Positions 8,225 to 48,484 of a stretch of 64,000 nucleotides of DNA are shown here, piece after piece (position 1 is the first letter of the stretch; each line of letters starts with the position of its first letter). The position numbers and the translations under genes were made by a program. The stretch covers positions 1 to 64,000 of the forward strand of contig NZ_QBAW01000007.1 in NCBI RefSeq assembly GCF_009689985.1, written 5' to 3'. This DNA comes from Helicobacter pylori. Lineage in GTDB: Bacteria > Campylobacterota > Campylobacteria > Campylobacterales > Helicobacteraceae. The notes under the pieces are model-generated. The model made no database searches and was not told the origin of the DNA. It saw only the letters and a list, made by a program, of their open reading frames with translations.

Positions 8225-9370
8225 CTACCTTTCCAAAAACAAATCTTTCTCTTGGATTTCCGTTTCTTCGCTTAAAATCGCCGCTCTTTCCACGACGCCT
8301 AAAAGCTCTCGCACATTCCCATGCCAAGAATATTCTAAAAGGCGTTTTGCGGCGTTTTTTGAAAAAGATTTTGGCCCCAAATGATAAGCGTCGCACACTT
8401 CTTTAAGCTTGATTTCAGCAATGGGTAGAATCTCTTCTACTCTCTCTCTTAAAGGCGCGATAGTTATAGGCACGATTTGCAAGCGGAAAAACAAATCTTC
8501 TCTGAATTCTTTTGAAGCGATTTTTTCTTTCATGTTAGCGTTGGTGGCGGAAATGAAACGAACATCAATTTTAACGCTCTTATTATCCCCAAGGCGTGTG
8601 ATTTCTTTTTCTTGAACCACTCTTAAAAGTTTGCTTTGCAATTGAATGGGCATTTCAGCGATTTCATCTAAAAAGATCGTGCCTTTATTCGCACTTTCAA
8701 AAAGCCCCATTTTAGGCGCTGTGGCGTCCGTGAACGCCCCTTTTTGATACCCAAAAAGCTCGCTTTCTAATAAATGCTCTGGGATTGCGGACATGTTGAT
8801 TGCGATAAAAGGGTGTTTGGAGCGCTGAGAATGCTGGTGGATGAAATGAGCAAAAACTTCCTTACCCACCCCGCTTTCGCCTAATAGCATGACATTAGCG
8901 TCCGTGCTTGCGACTTTTAAGGCCTGCCGTTTGCTCTCTTCTAAAGCTTTTGAAGTGGCTAAAAAGCTGTGTTTGTGTGGTTTTTTTAAAGGTTTTTCTA
9001 AAGGGTGTTTTTTTTGAAATTCTAAAACTTTTTTAGTGCGATAGATAGATTCTAAAAGCAATTCTGGTTTAAAAGGCTTTTGGAAAAAGTCTTTCACGCC
9101 TAAACGAATGGAATCAATGGCTTTATTCAAGGTCGCATTACCGGTAATCACAATGGATTCATACTTGCCTTCTAAAAGGCGTAAAAATTCCAAGCCGTCC
9201 ATATGGGGCATGTTAATATCCGTGATGACTAAATCAAAGCTTTCATCTAATTTGGCTAAAGCGTCTTTAGGGTTTTTAAAACTCACAATCTCTAAATCGT
9301 CTTGAAGCTCAAAAAAAAGCTCCAGGCTTTTACGCATGTTAATATCGTCTTCTACAATGGCGATTTTCAT
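8225..9370 (-). CDS. flgR: Sigma-54-dependent response regulator FlgR
   Basis: FlgR activates RpoN-dependent middle flagellar genes (rod, hook, flaB) after phosphorylation by FlgS. The 381 residues hold a receiver domain (1-115, phosphoacceptor D51 in VITDINMPHMDG) and an AAA+ domain with Walker A LLGESGVGKE and the sigma-54 contact loop GAFTDA. The protein ends just after the AAA+ C-domain, with no Fis-type helix-turn-helix. The missing DNA-binding domain is a known trait of H. pylori FlgR. Its start overlaps the preceding gene by four bases, in an operon with gyrA. An A8 run (minus strand, 9008-9015) lies in the linker. Confidence 0.95.
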   Translation of the reverse strand: MKIAIVEDDINMRKSLELFFELQDDLEIVSFKNPKDALAKLDESFDLVITDINMPHMDGLEFLRLLEGKYESIVITGNATLNKAIDSIRLGVKDFFQKPFKPELLLESIYRTKKVLEFQKKHPLEKPLKKPHKHSFLATSKALEESKRQALKVASTDANVMLLGESGVGKEVFAHFIHQHSQRSKHPFIAINMSAIPEHLLESELFGYQKGAFTDATAPKMGLFESANKGTIFLDEIAEMPIQLQSKLLRVVQEKEITRLGDNKSVKIDVRFISATNANMKEKIASKEFREDLFFRLQIVPITIAPLRERVEEILPIAEIKLKEVCDAYHLGPKSFSKNAAKRLLEYSWHGNVRELLGVVERAAILSEETEIQEKDLFLER

Positions 9371-42205: not shown

Positions 42206-42242
42206 CCCCTAAAACTTAAAATTTTAAATTTTCTAGGGGGTT
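42206..42242. terminator. Terminator of the defence operon
   Basis: An inverted repeat with CCCCTA/TAGGGG arms around an AAAATTTTAA core follows the HEPN gene stop. On the minus strand it is followed by TGTTTTTC. Confidence 0.6.
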
Positions 42243-43628
42243 TTAGCGGTTTGGCTCTGCGATTTTTTCTGTTTTTGGGGGGTTTCTTAATTTAACTTTG
42301 TTAAGAAAACCAAAATTGTTTGTAATAAAATCGCTCAATCCTATCTTACCAAAGAAATATTCAATGACAATTTGCTTGAAATCCATAAAAACATGGCTAA
42401 TGTCTGTAGCTTTGTTTGTATCAAGCTTTAAATCATCTCCGTGTGCTAGATTGTTGCGGCAGTCAACAATCTGTTGGATTAGATCTTTTTGATAGTTATC
42501 ATTAAAATAATTTTTTGTTTGATCGCATTTTGTCCTAGATAATGAAATTTTAAAAAATTCAGAGAGTTTTTTACAGAGTTTTGTTCCTTGTGGTTTCTTT
42601 AAAAAACTTTCAATAAAACTTTCAATCATGCTAATCAATACAAACATGTCCAAATACAAGTGAATAATTGGATCTTTTTTGTTGATAATGTCTAAAATAC
42701 TTGCAAGTTGAAAACCTCTATTATCTTTAATATTATCTTTAATATAAAAATCAATCCATTTTTCAAGTATTACAGAAAAATTGTCTATCTGTTGGAAATT
42801 TATAGCAATCCCATAAGAATCTATCTCCATGGACTTTTTGTCTTTTTTGTAAGTGTTTCTTATTGCTGTAATGTTTTTATTAGAAAGTTTGAATTGGATA
42901 TAGTCAATTTGGATGTCAAACTTAGAATGAGCATAAATCAAAACAAAGAAATTTTTAATCGCTTCAGCAATAAGCGCTAATTCTTCAAGGGTTTCAAAAA
43001 TCATATCACATTCCAAAAACAAATCAAATTGATAAGTTAATAAACGATTCTGTCTTTTAGGAACCAAATTAGATTTTGCTTTTATCTTATCTTTTTCATA
43101 TCTTTGGGACAAAAAATCATTTTGAATATAAAATGATTGTAAAATAAAATCCTTATTTTTATCCCCATGATAACTTTCACACACACTTTCATCTACTTTA
43201 AATAATGCATCAGGTAGCAAATGCTTCTTGGTCGTAAAAAAACTTTCTAAATAATTTGTTCTGCAATTAAAACGATCGCCCATAATTTTTTCTGGATCGA
43301 TCCAATCATCAAACAGCCATTCATAATAGAGCGTGATTGGTGCAGAATACCCTAAAGTATGACCTAAAATAATGCGATCATAAAGCTTGTAAAGAGTGTA
43401 TCTTTTTGTGTTATCCACAATATAGAGCGTTTGGTATTGTGGATTGGTATAAAGTGAGTAAATCTCTTTAATTTCTCCTAAAACCAAAAAAGAAAAAGAA
43501 ATTTTGTTTTCTTGATACGAAAACACTCCTGGAATGCATTGCTCATTTTGTGGATTAGTTTGTGGATTTTTTAAGAAAGCAAGACATTGCCTTTCAAAAT
43601 ATTCCACACCTCCAAGCGATGTGATCAC
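42243..43628 (-). CDS. ApeA-like HEPN-domain protein, predicted abortive-infection RNase
   Basis: A 461-residue protein. The N-terminal 130 residues (around CIPGVFSYQENKISFSFLVL and YTLYKLYDRIILG) resemble the ApeA N-terminal domain. The C-terminus is an Apea-like HEPN domain with the catalytic R-x4-H motif VDCRNNLAHGDD, R391 and H396 (bases 42441-42458). HEPN proteins of this type are RNases in antiphage defence. The GTG start overlaps the methyltransferase stop as GTGA, with AGAGG five bases upstream, so it is translationally coupled to the restriction-modification gene. Function is inferred from motif and context. Confidence 0.75.
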   Translation of the reverse strand: MITSLGGVEYFERQCLAFLKNPQTNPQNEQCIPGVFSYQENKISFSFLVLGEIKEIYSLYTNPQYQTLYIVDNTKRYTLYKLYDRIILGHTLGYSAPITLYYEWLFDDWIDPEKIMGDRFNCRTNYLESFFTTKKHLLPDALFKVDESVCESYHGDKNKDFILQSFYIQNDFLSQRYEKDKIKAKSNLVPKRQNRLLTYQFDLFLECDMIFETLEELALIAEAIKNFFVLIYAHSKFDIQIDYIQFKLSNKNITAIRNTYKKDKKSMEIDSYGIAINFQQIDNFSVILEKWIDFYIKDNIKDNRGFQLASILDIINKKDPIIHLYLDMFVLISMIESFIESFLKKPQGTKLCKKLSEFFKISLSRTKCDQTKNYFNDNYQKDLIQQIVDCRNNLAHGDDLKLDTNKATDISHVFMDFKQIVIEYFFGKIGLSDFITNNFGFLNKVKLRNPPKTEKIAEPNR

Positions 43629-46600
43629 TCAAACCTCTTCTTACTAATTTTTTCAATCAAATCCACGCTTTTTTCAGAGAGTTTGATGACCCTACAAAGG
43701 AGTTCAAAAACATATTTTCCGCCGGCATAATCGTTCGAGTTGTTTTCAATCAAGCTGTCTTTATCTTTAGTCTTTTGATAGCGTTCGATCACCCAGTCAA
43801 TCGCGCTTTTGCCATTCACCACATAGTCAAAGGCTTTTTGGGGGATTTTAGTGATGGTGATATGGTGGTTATAAAGGATGCAATCCCCTTTTTTGGTCAT
43901 TTTTTCCACATCATAATAGCCCTCTATTTTGGCGTTCTCTAGTAGGTTGTATTGAACGCTTGCGTGCATTTCCCCGCTCTCATAGTTCAGATGCAACTCG
44001 GCTAATTCTTTGCCAAGAGTAGAGAGTTCTTTAAAATCTTCGCTCAAAGCGATACGAGGCGCTTCTTTGGTGAGAGAATTTTTGTATTTTTCCAAATAAC
44101 CTTTATGGTGGAAAATCGCATAAATGTAGTAAAAAATCTCTTCTTCAGTGATAGCATTATCTTTATAATGCCTCCTGAAGAGATTGAGCGCATAGCCGCT
44201 GATAGCGTTATAGCGGTTCCCCAGATCGTCGTAATAATACAAGGGGTAAGCTTGGGTGTTCGCCATTGTTTGGACATCAGTAATCTCGTTTGCAATCAAG
44301 CAGGAAAAATTTCTTGAAGCCATTGAACTTGTATTAATCACCACATTATTAGCGCTTTTATCCGGGAAAATTTTTGAAAATTGATATTGTTCTTCATTTA
44401 AATTCTTATCAAAATAAAGCCATTGTTTGTTAAAAGGGCGGTATAAGGCTAACCTTACGCGCTCTTCACTACTTGTTGGCAGATTTGTATTTTTAATAAA
44501 TCCTTGTTTCAAACTACGAGTCCAAGCGATTTTCGTTTTATCGGTGGTGATTTCTCTATCGTTTAAGTGCTTATAGAGTTTGTCTGACTTGACGCCTTTA
44601 GTGCGTTGTTTGAAGGCTTCCCTGAAACGCTCATTGAAGCGCTTCAAATCAGCGTTATAGGTGTCAATGCAGTTTTGCACCGATTGCTTTAAAGCGTTTG
44701 GTGAAAAGTTATACACCCAAGGATCACGACCGCTCACCACCCCATTAGAATTGAGATCAAAAATACTATCATTTTTGAGTTTTTTGTCTCTTTTTAAAGG
44801 GATGAGCTTTCCAAAATCGTCATTCCTTTGGTTGATCCAATCGCCTTTGTCATTGGGGGTAATTTCCTTAAAAGGCACAAAATCCAGATTTTCAAAATTG
44901 GCGAGCAAGTTGAGTTTGGCTTCTCTTTTTAAATAATCATCCACTTCATAGTAAAAAATCGTATTATTGGGGGCACTCTCATCTTTCACAAAAAAGATGA
45001 TCGCTACCGTCGCCCTGGATCCGCTATCAAAGATTTTCCCTCCCTCTTTTCTAGACACTTCCCCTGAAGTACGCTGATTCCCCCTCAAATTCAGCACATA
45101 AAGATGCGAAAATTCTTGTGCCACGCATTTTCTGAACCCGTCTGAGCTTTTATTATCAATGAAACTCCCGTTCACCACAAAGCCTAGCACCCCCTTATCG
45201 TTAAGAAGATCGCTCGCCATGCGTATTGACTGAATGAGCGTGTCTCGTGTGGTTGCCCCCGCTTTGGCGGTGGAATTTTTGCCGTATTTTTCATAAACTA
45301 ATTTTTCAAGCTTAGGGTGTGAAAGGTTTTGGTTGTTATCGTTTTCGCTTTTAGCGCCGCTTGAATAAGGCGGGTTGCCGATGATGACTTGGATTTTTTG
45401 GTCGGCTAGAGTGGTTTTGATTTCTTGGTTTTCTTTCAAATCTTCAAAGAAAGGGAATACCCCCTTAACGCTTTTTTCTTCCAAATAATCCAAGCTGTCC
45501 GTGAGCGCGATGTTTTTGAAATTTTTTAACGAGCTGTCCCTATTTTGCGCGGCTTGGGTGATATTGATTAAAGCGATATAATAAGATAAAAGCACGATGT
45601 CAAAAGCGAACAGATTTTTTTGAAATTTCTCTTTTAGGGCTTCATCGCTAATGAGCGCGTTTTCTTTAGAAAGCAAACGAGCGATAAAACTCCCGGTGCC
45701 CGTGAATGGGTCAAAAATCGTGATGTTTTTATCGTTAAAATCCGTGTTGAAATGCTTTTTCAAAATGCCGTTAGTGGCCCTTAAAATGAAATCCACCACC
45801 TCTATAGGCGTATAAACGATCCCTAGTTTTTCGCTTTGCTTTCTAAAGGCTTCTTTAAAGAAAGTGTTGTAGAGGTTTTTAATGAGTTCTTGTTGGCTTT
45901 TTGGGCTTTTGGCATGCGCCGCTTCGGTTTTCACGCTTTCATAGAGGTTTTTAAGATCTTTAGTTTCCCCTTCTAGCCCTAGATCGGAGAGTTTTAAAAC
46001 CATTTTATCCAAGGCTTTAGCGATAGGGTTTTTGATATTGTCCCCAAAAAGCGCATCAAAAATGGGCTTAGTGATGATGTGAGAAACGAGCATATCCAAC
46101 GCTTCCTCATTCTTAATGCCTTGATGGATATTGTCCCTTAAAGAAGTTAAAAAGTTGTCAAAAATTTCATGGTTTTTGCCAAAAAGCTCTTTCAAGCGGT
46201 TATTTAAGGTTCTTGCGATGTTGCCCGTTTTTTTGGCGAAATTTTCCCAATAATTCCTGTCCCCTAATTTAGTGGGCATGACATTATACACAGCGTTCGC
46301 TAGATCTTGCAGCAAGATAGCGTCAAAAAGGGTTTTTTGGGCTTCTTTGGGATCGTTTTGAGCTTGCTCGGTTTTATCTTTTTTTAACTCTTCATCATCG
46401 TCTGTATTGCTTTCATCATTACTTCCAAAGATTTTGATTTTTTCTTTAAAAGTGGCTTCATCAACGAGACTTGAATCATGGCTTCTTAAGGCTTTTAGCA
46501 CTTTCCAAATGTTTTGGAAATTGGTGTTCTTGACGGCTTCATCTAGGTTTTTGATTTCACTCTCTGCTAAAGCGATAGGCAAAATGATATAGCCTCTTTT

Positions 46601-47020
46601 TTTGTTTTTGGCTTTCCGCATCACCCTACCCACCGCTTGGATAATATCCACCATGGCACTCTTGCCATCAAAAAAGATAACGCTATCAAGTGCTGGGACA
46701 TCCACCCCCTCGCTCAAACACCTGGCATTACTCAAAACCTTACAAGTGTTAGGCTCGAATTGGTTCAAGTTTTCTAATTTCTCAAGCCTCTCCTTACAAT
46801 TCATGGTGCCATCAATGTGATCGATGCTGATTTCTAGGTTTTTAAAACTCTTTTTCTTCAGCTCTTCATCATAGCATTCCATGATCGTTTTAAAGGAGTT
46901 GTTGATATTTTTACTCGTTTGTATGCTTTTACAAAAGCTTATGGCTCTTTGAGAAACAAAGGTGTCTTTTTGGCTTTTCAAGTCGTTGTCTTCTTTGTTT
47001 TCATCGTCTAAAGCGATCAA
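43625..47020 (-). CDS. Type ISP-like R-M protein, C-terminal part: helicase C domain, N6-adenine methyltransferase, specificity region
   Basis: This is the downstream fragment of a split gene, 1131 codons from a TTG that overlaps the previous stop. It starts inside the SF2 helicase: LSEGVDVPALDSVIFFDG and QAVGRVMRKAKNKKRG are helicase motifs V and VI. An N6-adenine methyltransferase follows, with SAM motif FDPFTGTGSFIARLL (about residue 434) and catalytic NPPYSSG (about 547). The remaining 450 residues would hold the target-recognition domain. The order matches LlaBIII-like type ISP enzymes. If translated alone it could still methylate DNA. Confidence 0.75.
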   Translation of the reverse strand: MIALDDENKEDNDLKSQKDTFVSQRAISFCKSIQTSKNINNSFKTIMECYDEELKKKSFKNLEISIDHIDGTMNCKERLEKLENLNQFEPNTCKVLSNARCLSEGVDVPALDSVIFFDGKSAMVDIIQAVGRVMRKAKNKKRGYIILPIALAESEIKNLDEAVKNTNFQNIWKVLKALRSHDSSLVDEATFKEKIKIFGSNDESNTDDDEELKKDKTEQAQNDPKEAQKTLFDAILLQDLANAVYNVMPTKLGDRNYWENFAKKTGNIARTLNNRLKELFGKNHEIFDNFLTSLRDNIHQGIKNEEALDMLVSHIITKPIFDALFGDNIKNPIAKALDKMVLKLSDLGLEGETKDLKNLYESVKTEAAHAKSPKSQQELIKNLYNTFFKEAFRKQSEKLGIVYTPIEVVDFILRATNGILKKHFNTDFNDKNITIFDPFTGTGSFIARLLSKENALISDEALKEKFQKNLFAFDIVLLSYYIALINITQAAQNRDSSLKNFKNIALTDSLDYLEEKSVKGVFPFFEDLKENQEIKTTLADQKIQVIIGNPPYSSGAKSENDNNQNLSHPKLEKLVYEKYGKNSTAKAGATTRDTLIQSIRMASDLLNDKGVLGFVVNGSFIDNKSSDGFRKCVAQEFSHLYVLNLRGNQRTSGEVSRKEGGKIFDSGSRATVAIIFFVKDESAPNNTIFYYEVDDYLKREAKLNLLANFENLDFVPFKEITPNDKGDWINQRNDDFGKLIPLKRDKKLKNDSIFDLNSNGVVSGRDPWVYNFSPNALKQSVQNCIDTYNADLKRFNERFREAFKQRTKGVKSDKLYKHLNDREITTDKTKIAWTRSLKQGFIKNTNLPTSSEERVRLALYRPFNKQWLYFDKNLNEEQYQFSKIFPDKSANNVVINTSSMASRNFSCLIANEITDVQTMANTQAYPLYYYDDLGNRYNAISGYALNLFRRHYKDNAITEEEIFYYIYAIFHHKGYLEKYKNSLTKEAPRIALSEDFKELSTLGKELAELHLNYESGEMHASVQYNLLENAKIEGYYDVEKMTKKGDCILYNHHITITKIPQKAFDYVVNGKSAIDWVIERYQKTKDKDSLIENNSNDYAGGKYVFELLCRVIKLSEKSVDLIEKISKKRFE

Positions 47021-48444
47021 ATCCTGTTGGCTAACCCTTTATGCGTGCCAACGATCTTACACACAAATTCGTTATTAATGAGCTTTTTATCTAATTTAGT
47101 GCCTTTGGCTTCAAGCTGGCTGATCTTTTTATTCACGCTGTTAGTAACGCCGCTTAAGTTTTCTGAACGCACCGCTAAAATGATGACTTTATAATCGGTG
47201 AGGAGATCTAAAGCGATCGCTCTTTCAAAATTGAGCGTATAGATTTCTTCGCCAAAAACCTCCGCATCATCCATAGAGTAGATAATATTATCGCTCTCTT
47301 TGGCTTTAGCTTTAGAACTTTCGCTATACACTTTAGGCGTGGCGGTCATATAAAGGCGTTTTGTAGCCTTGATATTTTCATCGCTGTGGCACAGCGTGAA
47401 AGCGTTTTTATCGTCCCTTTCATTCGTGGAATACATAGCCCCTACCGTTCTGTGGGCTTCATCGCAAATAATGAGATCGATTGCACCTAAACCCGCTTCT
47501 TGCGCTTCTTTAATACGCAACGCGCTTTGATAAGTTGAAAAGATAATGAAGCGCTTGTTTTCTTTTTGCGCTTTTTCATAAGTGCTTAAAATGTCTTCAA
47601 GGCGAGTGGAGGGCTTTATAGGGAGCTCAGAAAATTTAATATCGTCATTGTCTTCGTTCTTACTTTGCCCGACTTTATCATCGCTGCACACGATAGAAGC
47701 GTAAAAAGGCTCGCTCTTTTCTTGCGCGTATTCTCTAAAAGTTTGAGAAAGCAAAGCGATGCTTGGCGCTAAAAAAAGCGTGATTTTGGGATCTAAAGCT
47801 TCCATGATTTTTAAAGAAGTGTAGGTTTTGCCTGTCCCGCATGCCATAATGAGCTTGCCTCTAGCGTTTTTAGGATTAGAAAAATACTCTTTGGTGGCTT
47901 TTATCGCTTCTATTTGGTGAGGGCGCGGCTTTTTCTTATCGCATAAGGGGAGTTCGCCTTGAGTTTGCGTGGGATCGAACTTTTCCCAATCAATCTGAGA
48001 ATAGATAAAATCCTCTTCACTGATTTCAACAATATCAATCCCTTTGCTTTTTCTGATTTGTTCAATTTCTTCAAGAGCGTTAGAGCTTAAATTAGAAGTG
48101 GAGATGATGATCCCTTTTTTAAACCCAACCTCCCCTACCCCGCTTTGCAATTTGCTTAAAAAAGTTGAAAGGTCGTTCAGTGAAACGCTGTCTTGATGGA
48201 ATTTGCATTGCACGGCGATGTATTCTTTTGAAGCCGTTGTAATCACCATATCAATCCCGCGATCGCTCTCCTTCCCCCTTAATTCCCAATCGCTCCAAAG
48301 ATCAATAGACTCGTATTCATCAGCGCTGTCATGCTCTTTTAAAAAACGCTTAGAAACTTTTTCAAACCAGCTCCCTTTAAGGCGTTGGTTGGGTATGGCT
48401 TGCAATTTTTCTTTGATGAGTTTATAGGTGCTGATTTCTGACAT
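47017..48444 (-). CDS. Type ISP-like R-M protein, N-terminal part: Mrr-like nuclease and helicase N domain
   Basis: The 475-residue upstream fragment. It holds an Mrr-type nuclease with RGIDMVITTASKEYIAVQCK (Asp and QxK, about residues 58-80). SF2 motifs follow: Walker A MACGTGKTYTS (about 197), DEAH in LIICDEAHRT (about 325) and YMTATPKVY. It stops at TGA just after GTHKGLANRI. In the next frame the reading continues as LIALDDENKED; restoring one G (AGG-GAT) would give NRDLIALDDENK. So a single-base deletion most likely splits one protein of about 1600 residues. ATG start with AAGGA seven bases upstream. Confidence 0.78.
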   Translation of the reverse strand: MSEISTYKLIKEKLQAIPNQRLKGSWFEKVSKRFLKEHDSADEYESIDLWSDWELRGKESDRGIDMVITTASKEYIAVQCKFHQDSVSLNDLSTFLSKLQSGVGEVGFKKGIIISTSNLSSNALEEIEQIRKSKGIDIVEISEEDFIYSQIDWEKFDPTQTQGELPLCDKKKPRPHQIEAIKATKEYFSNPKNARGKLIMACGTGKTYTSLKIMEALDPKITLFLAPSIALLSQTFREYAQEKSEPFYASIVCSDDKVGQSKNEDNDDIKFSELPIKPSTRLEDILSTYEKAQKENKRFIIFSTYQSALRIKEAQEAGLGAIDLIICDEAHRTVGAMYSTNERDDKNAFTLCHSDENIKATKRLYMTATPKVYSESSKAKAKESDNIIYSMDDAEVFGEEIYTLNFERAIALDLLTDYKVIILAVRSENLSGVTNSVNKKISQLEAKGTKLDKKLINNEFVCKIVGTHKGLANRI

Positions 48445-48478: not shown

Positions 48479-48484
48479 ATTATA
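48479..48484 (-). promoter_or_regulatory. -10 box of the R-M/HEPN operon
   Basis: A perfect TATAAT (minus strand) 34 bases before the ATG at 48444 lies between the operon and the glpC stop. The defence genes thus have their own promoter. Confidence 0.6.

What the first reader, a model, noticed from the sequence alone, without database searches (positions are those of the whole stretch)
42243..48444. Type ISP-like R-M gene coupled to an ApeA-like HEPN protein: candidate two-tier defence system
Seen: one promoter (TATAAT at 48479), nuclease-helicase, then methyltransferase, then a protein with R391-NNLA-H396 whose GTG start overlaps the methyltransferase stop. Known: HEPN R-x4-H proteins of the ApeA class act as RNases in abortive infection; PrrC of E. 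coli is a precedent for an RNase guarded by an R-M system. Inferred: the HEPN protein may be held silent by the R-M complex and fire when a phage blocks restriction. I know of no described pairing of a type ISP enzyme with ApeA-like HEPN.
Basis: partly seen in the sequence, partly recalled or inferred. Interest (0 to 1): 0.8.

Follow-up and report, generated by a model that had tools for sequence, protein, structure and literature searches.

The report
Swappable defence-gene slot behind restriction gene
In a Helicobacter pylori-type genome, a broken DNA-cutting (restriction) gene ends exactly where a gene for a likely RNA-cutting anti-phage protein begins, and related strains carry unrelated genes of defence-like families in that same spot, so the restriction gene likely serves as a docking bay where back-up defences, predicted to work on their own, are swapped in and out.

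Summary
The next gene (42243-43628) is an ApeA-type HEPN protein (profile match to the ApeA family, prob 93.6, E 2.2e-7; R391 and H396 invariant). Its GTG start overlaps the R-M stop by 4 bp.

The pairing is not fixed. In 14 H. pylori-type genomes the gap between the R-M stop and a constant flank holds HEPN (6), a KAP-type NTPase (3), SIR2 (1) or no gene (4). All nine slot genes with a readable start begin on the same GTGA. Distant orthologues carry SIR2 (two other genera), two DRT3 genes, or a fused DUF3800 domain.

Slot content does not fit the R-M gene tree (7 changes over 13 tips; shuffles average 6.4). Silent divergence is 0.107 in HEPN and 0.340 in the R-M gene. The R-M frame is broken in 13 of 14 genomes, including 4 of 5 with an open HEPN frame. 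"HEPN silenced by R-M" is therefore unlikely; a docking slot for self-standing defence genes fits better. ApeA HEPN genes in epsilonproteobacterial R-M operons, and a PrrC-like reading of R-M-linked HEPN proteins, were published in 2013. Function is untested.

The parts
47017..48444 (-). 5' part of a frame-broken type ISP R-M gene: Mrr-type nuclease and first helicase half (475 aa)
   Evidence: Pfam Mrr_cat_2 77.8 bits, ResIII 109.8; PDLC03597 positions 11-461
43625..47020 (-). 3' part of the same gene: Helicase_C, ISP_coupler, Eco57I methyltransferase, Type_ISP_C specificity domain (1131 aa)
   Evidence: Pfam PF18135 315.5 bits, PF22240 111.2, PF07669 40.3; PDLC03597 457-1637; one open frame in G023
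47017..47020 (-). place where the type ISP frame is broken (the two ORFs overlap by 4 bases in different frames; about residue 472)
48479..48484 (-). TATAAT, likely -10 element
   Evidence: read; no full sigma-70 match there; untested
43634..43637 (-). GAGG, Shine-Dalgarno-like, inside the last codons of the type ISP gene, 5 nt before the slot gene's GTG
   Evidence: same core and spacing in 11 of 13 H. pylori-type junctions (AAG in G020, AAGG at 7 nt in G017)
43625..43628 (-). GTGA: slot gene start overlapping the type ISP stop
42243..43628 (-). ApeA-type HEPN gene (461 aa), predicted RNase
   Evidence: HEPN_Apea 22.7 bits by hmmscan, cut-off 24.4, 25.8 in the genome scan; ApeA family profile E 2.2e-7
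42441..42458 (-). R391-x4-H396 motif
42277..43624 (-). exchange slot: sequence replaced by KAP, SIR2 or remnants in sister genomes; right edge at CCCCCC
42206..42240 (-). inverted repeat followed by a T run in the flank common to all 14 slots, likely terminator
   Evidence: seen by eye; not listed by the scan, which allows loops of 3-8 only

Best explanation
The window carries a frame-broken type ISP restriction-modification gene whose stop codon overlaps the start of an ApeA-type HEPN gene, in a slot where sister genomes carry a KAP-NTPase or SIR2 gene instead, and the HEPN protein is predicted to be a self-standing abortive-infection RNase that likely borrows only the restriction gene's promoter and ribosome-binding site. 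Shown: the domains, the 4-base overlap at the junction, the constant flanks, the presence of unrelated genes behind one base-exact left border, and the different histories of slot gene and R-M gene. Inferred: one transcript, translational coupling, exchange by natural transformation and recombination in the flanks, and protection from phage by each slot gene on its own trigger. The R-M gene would be the platform and not the guard.
For: 14 genomes share the place glpC-like | type ISP | slot | OMP. Slot: HEPN in G000, G018, G019, G023, G024 (open) and G022 (broken); KAP_NTPase in G021, G027 (open) and G016 (broken); SIR2 in G017; no gene in G020, G025, G026, G028. Three of those four keep a short stretch like the SIR2 start (by eye).

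Left border...GTTTGAGTGA in 13 of 13 readable junctions; in G022 it is deleted.

Further orthologues: SIR2 in G117 (in two ORFs) and behind the 3' piece of a split ISP gene in G213; Drt3a/Drt3b (337 and 583 bits) in G169; DUF3800 fused in frame in G405.

Content does not follow the ISP tree: 7 changes over 13 tips, shuffle mean 6.4. Mean dS: HEPN 0.107 (5 genomes), ISP 3' part 0.340 (6 genomes), neighbours 0.142-0.186 (4 genomes). For the pair G023-G019, dS is 0.051 in HEPN and 0.370 in ISP.

ISP is open in 1 of 14 genomes; HEPN is open in 5 of 6.

SIR2 and KAP relatives stand without ISP among the neighbours shown in other genomes of the family.

HEPN dN/dS 0.54; of 10 possible pairs I tested 5, and non-synonymous change is depleted in 4 (p 0.0008 to 0.03) and not in G023-G019 (p 0.44). 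The pairs are not independent.
Against: No phage, RNA or expression test exists here. Only 14 genomes, unnamed and one per species cluster, were compared. Type ISP is 3.4 times longer than HEPN, so 5 of 6 open against 1 of 14 open is not by itself evidence of stronger selection on HEPN. HEPN dN/dS of 0.54 is weak constraint. The discordant histories could also come from R-M alleles being replaced in front of a resident slot gene. Five type ISP relatives at 51-60% identity have no slot gene (G035, G052, G079, G105, G108), and of 16 plasmid loci inspected only 4 have an annotated same-strand gene within 100 bp. The slot is thus a habit of one branch and not of type ISP genes at large.
Confidence: 0.62

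Rival explanations
1. PrrC-like guard: the HEPN RNase is held silent by the type ISP protein and fires when a phage blocks restriction, so the two genes form a two-tier system.
For: Tight coupling. PrrC precedent and the published proposal for R-M-linked HEPN proteins (PMC3710099, passages). In G000 and G019 the ORF with methyltransferase and specificity domains is still open, and Krebes 2014 found that HP0669 of strain 26695 alone is an active methyltransferase (PMC3936762, passages), so part of a complex could persist.
Against: Open HEPN with the break in the methyltransferase domain (G018) or the specificity domain (G024). Unrelated genes in the same slot. Discordant histories. No ABC-type NTPase domain found in the HEPN protein.
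Confidence: 0.15
2. Chance passenger: the gap between the type ISP gene and the OMP gene is a neutral landing place; slot genes arrive, decay and are lost, and no operon function is selected.
For: Broken HEPN in G022 and broken KAP in G016, no gene in 4 of 14, decaying R-M gene. HEPN dN/dS 0.54.
Against: The nine readable slot genes begin on the same overlapping start, most behind a Shine-Dalgarno-like stretch coded by the R-M gene. HEPN, KAP, SIR2 and DRT3 match or resemble defence families; DUF3800 was not tested for this. The arrangement recurs in other genera.
Confidence: 0.15
3. Ancestral type ISP-SIR2 pair: type ISP and SIR2 are a true functional pair, and HEPN and KAP are later replacements that lost the link.
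For: SIR2 follows type ISP sequence in three genera (G017, G117, G213), with 65-71% identity over the first 260-270 residues. Three empty slots keep a SIR2-like start.
Against: A SIR2 remnant stays at the same place without ISP in G001, and relatives stand without ISP among the shown neighbours in G002, G011, G014 and others. In G017 most of ISP is deleted while SIR2 is open.
Confidence: 0.08

Closest known systems
ApeA (HEPN anti-phage protein; Pfam ApeA_NTD1 + HEPN_Apea; single-gene system is recalled)
   Same: N-terminal part matches at profile level, R-x4-H conserved; model with a strand-rich N-terminal half and a helical C-terminal half
   Different: 18-23% identity to the ApeA proteins aligned; Pfam finds no ApeA_NTD1 in it; sits behind an R-M gene
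ApeA/BMEI1217 HEPN genes in R-M operons of epsilonproteobacteria (Anantharaman 2013, PMC3710099, passages read)
   Same: Same HEPN family, same group of bacteria, R-M operon context
   Different: The passages seen name neither type ISP nor an exchange slot nor other occupants
PrrC with EcoprrI (type IC R-M guarded RNase; PMC12707154 and PMC3710099, passages read)
   Same: HEPN-type RNase gene coupled to an R-M gene
   Different: Here the R-M gene is mostly broken, the partner is replaceable, and no NTPase domain was found in it
HpyAXVIII / HP0667-HP0669 type ISP of strain 26695 and JHP0612-0613 of J99 (Krebes 2014, PMC3936762, passages read)
   Same: H. pylori type ISP system, also frame-broken (two breaks in 26695, one in J99)
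   Different: The passages read do not treat the downstream gene; equivalence to the window copy rests on gene order recalled from memory
DRT3 (two reverse transcriptases; PADLOC Drt3a/Drt3b)
   Same: Found 3' of a type ISP orthologue in G169
   Different: Likely starts about 28 bases after the stop, not on the overlap (my choice of start codon)
LlaBIII-type ISP enzymes (recalled)
   Same: Nuclease, helicase, coupler, methyltransferase and specificity domains in one polypeptide
   Different: The window copy is broken; I recall no slot described for them

Membership tests
ApeA-type HEPN protein | HEPN_Apea domain (PF18739) | tested here: met
   25.8 bits for the window and 28.2 for G018, over the cut-off of 24.4, in the genome scan. 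Against: 22.7 bits, just under it, by hmmscan; PADLOC gives no hit
ApeA-type HEPN protein | R-x4-6-H motif | tested here: met
   R391, H396 invariant in 16 and in 38 rows
ApeA-type HEPN protein | ApeA N-terminal domain 1 | tested here: met
   hhalign with 20 ApeA proteins: prob 93.6, E 2.2e-7, residues 70-346; prob 92.4 and residues 70-400 as run, where 40 column-shuffled decoys reach at most 2.9. Against: Pfam PF18862 gives no match at E<=1; with only 3 or 2 ApeA proteins the match is weak (prob 32, 10.8 and 1.5)
ApeA-type HEPN protein | HEPN fold | tested here: inconclusive
ApeA-type HEPN protein | RNase activity and phage-triggered abortive infection | not testable with these tools
   needs assays
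Type ISP R-M enzyme | Mrr nuclease, helicase, coupler, methyltransferase and Type_ISP_C domains in order | tested here: met
Type ISP R-M enzyme | one uninterrupted polypeptide | tested here: not met
   frame broken in the window; open in 1 of 14 genomes, G023. Described as a frame-broken type ISP gene
PrrC-like R-M guard system | RNase gene coupled to R-M gene | tested here: met
PrrC-like R-M guard system | RNase kept with an intact R-M partner | tested here: not met
   4 of 5 open HEPN genes have a broken partner
PrrC-like R-M guard system | activation when restriction is blocked | not testable with these tools
   needs phage assays

The most novel reading that the evidence does not exclude
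The 3' end of this type ISP branch is a dedicated launch bay: the enzyme's last codons have been shaped into a ribosome-binding site plus an overlapping GTGA start, into which unrelated effectors (HEPN RNase, SIR2 NADase, KAP NTPase, and near it DRT3 and DUF3800) are plugged, and the type ISP protein or its translation is their common trigger, so that breaks in the R-M frame tune the back-up effector.
Probability: 0.15. Interest if true: 0.85.

Novelty: new variant of a known kind. Interest (0 to 1): 0.6.

Why it matters
R-M genes and abortive-infection genes are known neighbours, and a guard relation is easily assumed from adjacency. Here one R-M locus holds unrelated partners on the same start site in close relatives, which separates "next to" from "works with" and gives a natural set of swaps to test it. 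It also offers a simple rule for finding defence genes: read what starts on the stop codon of type ISP genes of this branch. If the bay is real, H. pylori exchanges whole back-up defences at one locus, much as it is known (recalled) to exchange R-M genes.

Tried and rejected
First structure model, from 16 close sequences, was unusable (pLDDT 32.7); the second, with ApeA relatives, was better (58.9). The Desulfuromusa hit of the genome-contig scan is a chance match around one 8-residue word. Weak matches to CodY structures (E 0.0018, residues 181-249) and to an Lsa36 family (E 0.002) were not pursued: they agree with nothing else. Foldseek against the PDB gave nothing at E<=0.001. Promoter-like and terminator-like sites were 23 against 16.1 and 10 against 6.8 in shuffles and decide nothing. 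Counting open frames alone does not show stronger selection on HEPN, because the genes differ in length; dN/dS was therefore used, and it is only moderate.

Literature: searches for type ISP with HEPN and with SIR2 gave 0 papers in this open-access library; one search gave one paper, unrelated by title; (HP0670) gave one paper, seen in the listing only. Searches were seen as listings. Subscription papers and preprint servers were not covered, so this is weak evidence of absence. PMC549213 was read as passages and bears little on the question.

Rows left out of counts: G017 from the ISP tree (most of ISP deleted); G000 from the neighbour-gene dS; G022's HEPN and G016's KAP from dN/dS (broken). 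For ISP dS only the six genomes with a long open 3' part were used. Of 788 plasmid records with a type ISP match I looked at 16, chosen from the 40 best; their gene table is known to be incomplete. The output was cut, so the 3' sides of the more distant type ISP relatives (39-47% identity, L061-L065) were seen only in part and are not counted. Of the 11 genomes with a SIR2 match, G033 was not resolved.

Full report
What is there. On the - strand of the window lie three head-to-tail ORFs. The first two are pieces of one type ISP restriction-modification gene. The 475-aa piece has the Mrr-type nuclease and the helicase start; the 1131-aa piece has the helicase end, the ISP coupler, an Eco57I-type methyltransferase and the Type_ISP_C specificity domain. 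Both match one PADLOC model in order, and G023 has the whole as a single frame of 1587 aa. The window copy is therefore frame-broken near residue 472. The third ORF (461 aa) starts with GTG on the stop codon of the second. The genome is taken to be H. pylori or a very near relative because every named protein among the 120 listed matches of the third ORF (of 136) is from H. pylori.

The slot. In 14 genomes with the same neighbours, the stretch between the type ISP stop and a constant flank (CCCCCCAAAAACAG... followed by a terminator-like repeat) differs. HEPN: G000, G018, G019, G023, G024, and broken in G022. KAP-family NTPase (PF07693): G021, G027, and broken in G016. SIR2 (PF13289): G017, where most of the type ISP gene is deleted. 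No gene: G020, G025, G026, G028; the first three keep about 20 bases like the SIR2 start (by eye). The nine slot genes of this group whose start can be read begin on the same GTGA. Eleven of the 13 readable junctions have GAGG five bases before it, inside the last codons of the type ISP gene. Five type ISP relatives without a slot gene (G035, G052, G079, G105, G108) lack such a core at 5-7 bases.

Beyond H. pylori. G117 (another genus, type ISP 60% identical) has SIR2, in two ORFs, on an ATGA overlap. In one other genus of the order, 4 of 49 genomes had a match at E<=1e-30 and three of those carry the close orthologue. They show SIR2 (G213, behind the 3' piece of an ISP gene whose other piece lies about 36 kb away), Drt3a and Drt3b (G169; 337 and 583 bits; likely start about 28 bases after the stop), and a DUF3800 domain (21.7 bits, cut-off 21) in frame at the end of the type ISP protein (G405). 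In G323, of another family, an ApeA-like HEPN ORF starts on the last base of a type IIG R-M gene. On plasmids the habit is rare: 4 of 16 inspected loci have an annotated same-strand gene within 100 bp (SIR2 plus ATP-binding protein, SMEK, TcmP, "abortive infection family protein"), and 12 do not.

Different histories. Mean silent divergence is 0.107 for HEPN (5 genomes), 0.340 for the type ISP 3' part (6 genomes) and 0.142-0.186 for neighbours (4 genomes). For G023 and G019 it is 0.051 in HEPN and 0.370 in type ISP. Slot content changes 7 times over the 13-tip type ISP tree, no better than shuffled labels (mean 6.4). So either slot genes moved between type ISP alleles, or alleles were replaced in front of them; both separate the two genes. 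Type ISP is broken in 13 of 14 genomes at different places. HEPN is open in 5 of 6, and 4 of those 5 have a broken type ISP. HEPN dN/dS is 0.54, KAP 0.42 (one pair), type ISP 0.29, neighbours 0.06-0.15. I tested 5 of the 10 HEPN pairs: non-synonymous change is depleted in four (p 0.0008, 0.003, 0.011, 0.03) and not in one (0.44). Constraint on HEPN is present but weak.

Partners elsewhere. SIR2 relatives occur in 11 of 121 family genomes. In 2 (G017, G117) they follow type ISP sequence, in 8 no type ISP ORF is among the neighbours shown, and 1 (G033) was not resolved. In G001 a SIR2 remnant sits at the same chromosomal place with no type ISP gene. KAP relatives occur in 9 of 121, six of them outside this slot and without type ISP among the neighbours shown. 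The HEPN family itself occurs in 7 of 121 family genomes and 7 of 397 phylum genomes, the seventh being a fragment in G098 directly before an open KAP gene and without type ISP. So KAP and SIR2 are not bound to the R-M gene; for this HEPN family the evidence outside the slot is one fragment.

How it most likely works. One likely promoter (TATAAT at 48484-48479) would drive the R-M gene and the slot gene. Ribosomes ending at the R-M stop, or loading at the GAGG, would start the slot gene. The HEPN protein would wait for its own phage cue and cut RNA, stopping growth of the infected cell. Natural transformation, with crossovers in the R-M 3' end and in the constant right flank, would exchange occupants. 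All of this paragraph is inference from anatomy. The guard model is left at 0.15 because two open HEPN genes sit behind R-M genes broken in the methyltransferase or specificity domain.

What is known. ApeA HEPN genes in epsilonproteobacterial R-M operons, and the PrrC-like reading of R-M-linked HEPN proteins, are in print (PMC3710099, passages). The H. pylori type ISP system, its frame breaks in 26695 and J99, and methylation by the HP0669 piece alone are in print (PMC3936762, passages). I found no account of the exchange slot in the listings of searches of an open-access library, which is limited evidence. That ApeA and DRT3 are self-standing systems is recalled; the start of one abstract speaks of DRT3 immunity from its two reverse transcriptases.

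Verdict. A new variant of a known kind: an R-M gene with a base-exact 3' exchange slot for defence-type genes.

Noticed in passing
L060:7494-9929 (G098): A HEPN fragment in two ORFs is followed by an open KAP NTPase overlapping it by 4 bases, without any type ISP gene: both slot kinds side by side.
   Followed up: partly
L139:4644-8914 (G323): A type IIG R-M gene (PDLC03609, 714 bits) is followed on its last base by an ApeA-like HEPN ORF (374 aa; one search counts one stop inside the domain match): a second R-M and HEPN coupling in another family.
   Followed up: partly
L152:7549-11323 (G169): A two-gene DRT3 system directly behind a type ISP gene.
   Followed up: partly
L151:2593-8454 (G405): A type ISP protein of 1953 aa with a DUF3800 domain at its C-terminus.
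   Followed up: partly
L153 and L154 (G213): The type ISP gene is split into two pieces about 36 kb apart; the 3' piece is followed by a 901-aa SIR2 gene.
   Followed up: partly
L094:8489-10231 (G001): A SIR2 gene with an inner deletion directly behind the glpC-like gene, at the place where sister genomes have type ISP: no R-M gene there, a slot gene remnant is.
   Followed up: partly
L048, after position 8316 (G028): Empty slot with a remnant that does not look like HEPN, KAP or SIR2: perhaps a fourth past occupant.
   Followed up: no
window 43625-48444 and the alignment: Diversity along the type ISP gene is mostly 0.13-0.25 in the methyltransferase and specificity part and 0.07-0.08 in the last 150 bases before the slot, a possible crossover zone.
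   Followed up: partly
P0026, P0047, near residue 340: Two of 16 aligned H. pylori HEPN proteins carry an in-frame tandem duplication of about 35-45 residues at the start of the HEPN half.
   Followed up: no
L141:5800-10351 (G248): A HEPN gene lies among DNA methyltransferase-like ORFs and a DUF262-like gene (recognised by eye).
   Followed up: no
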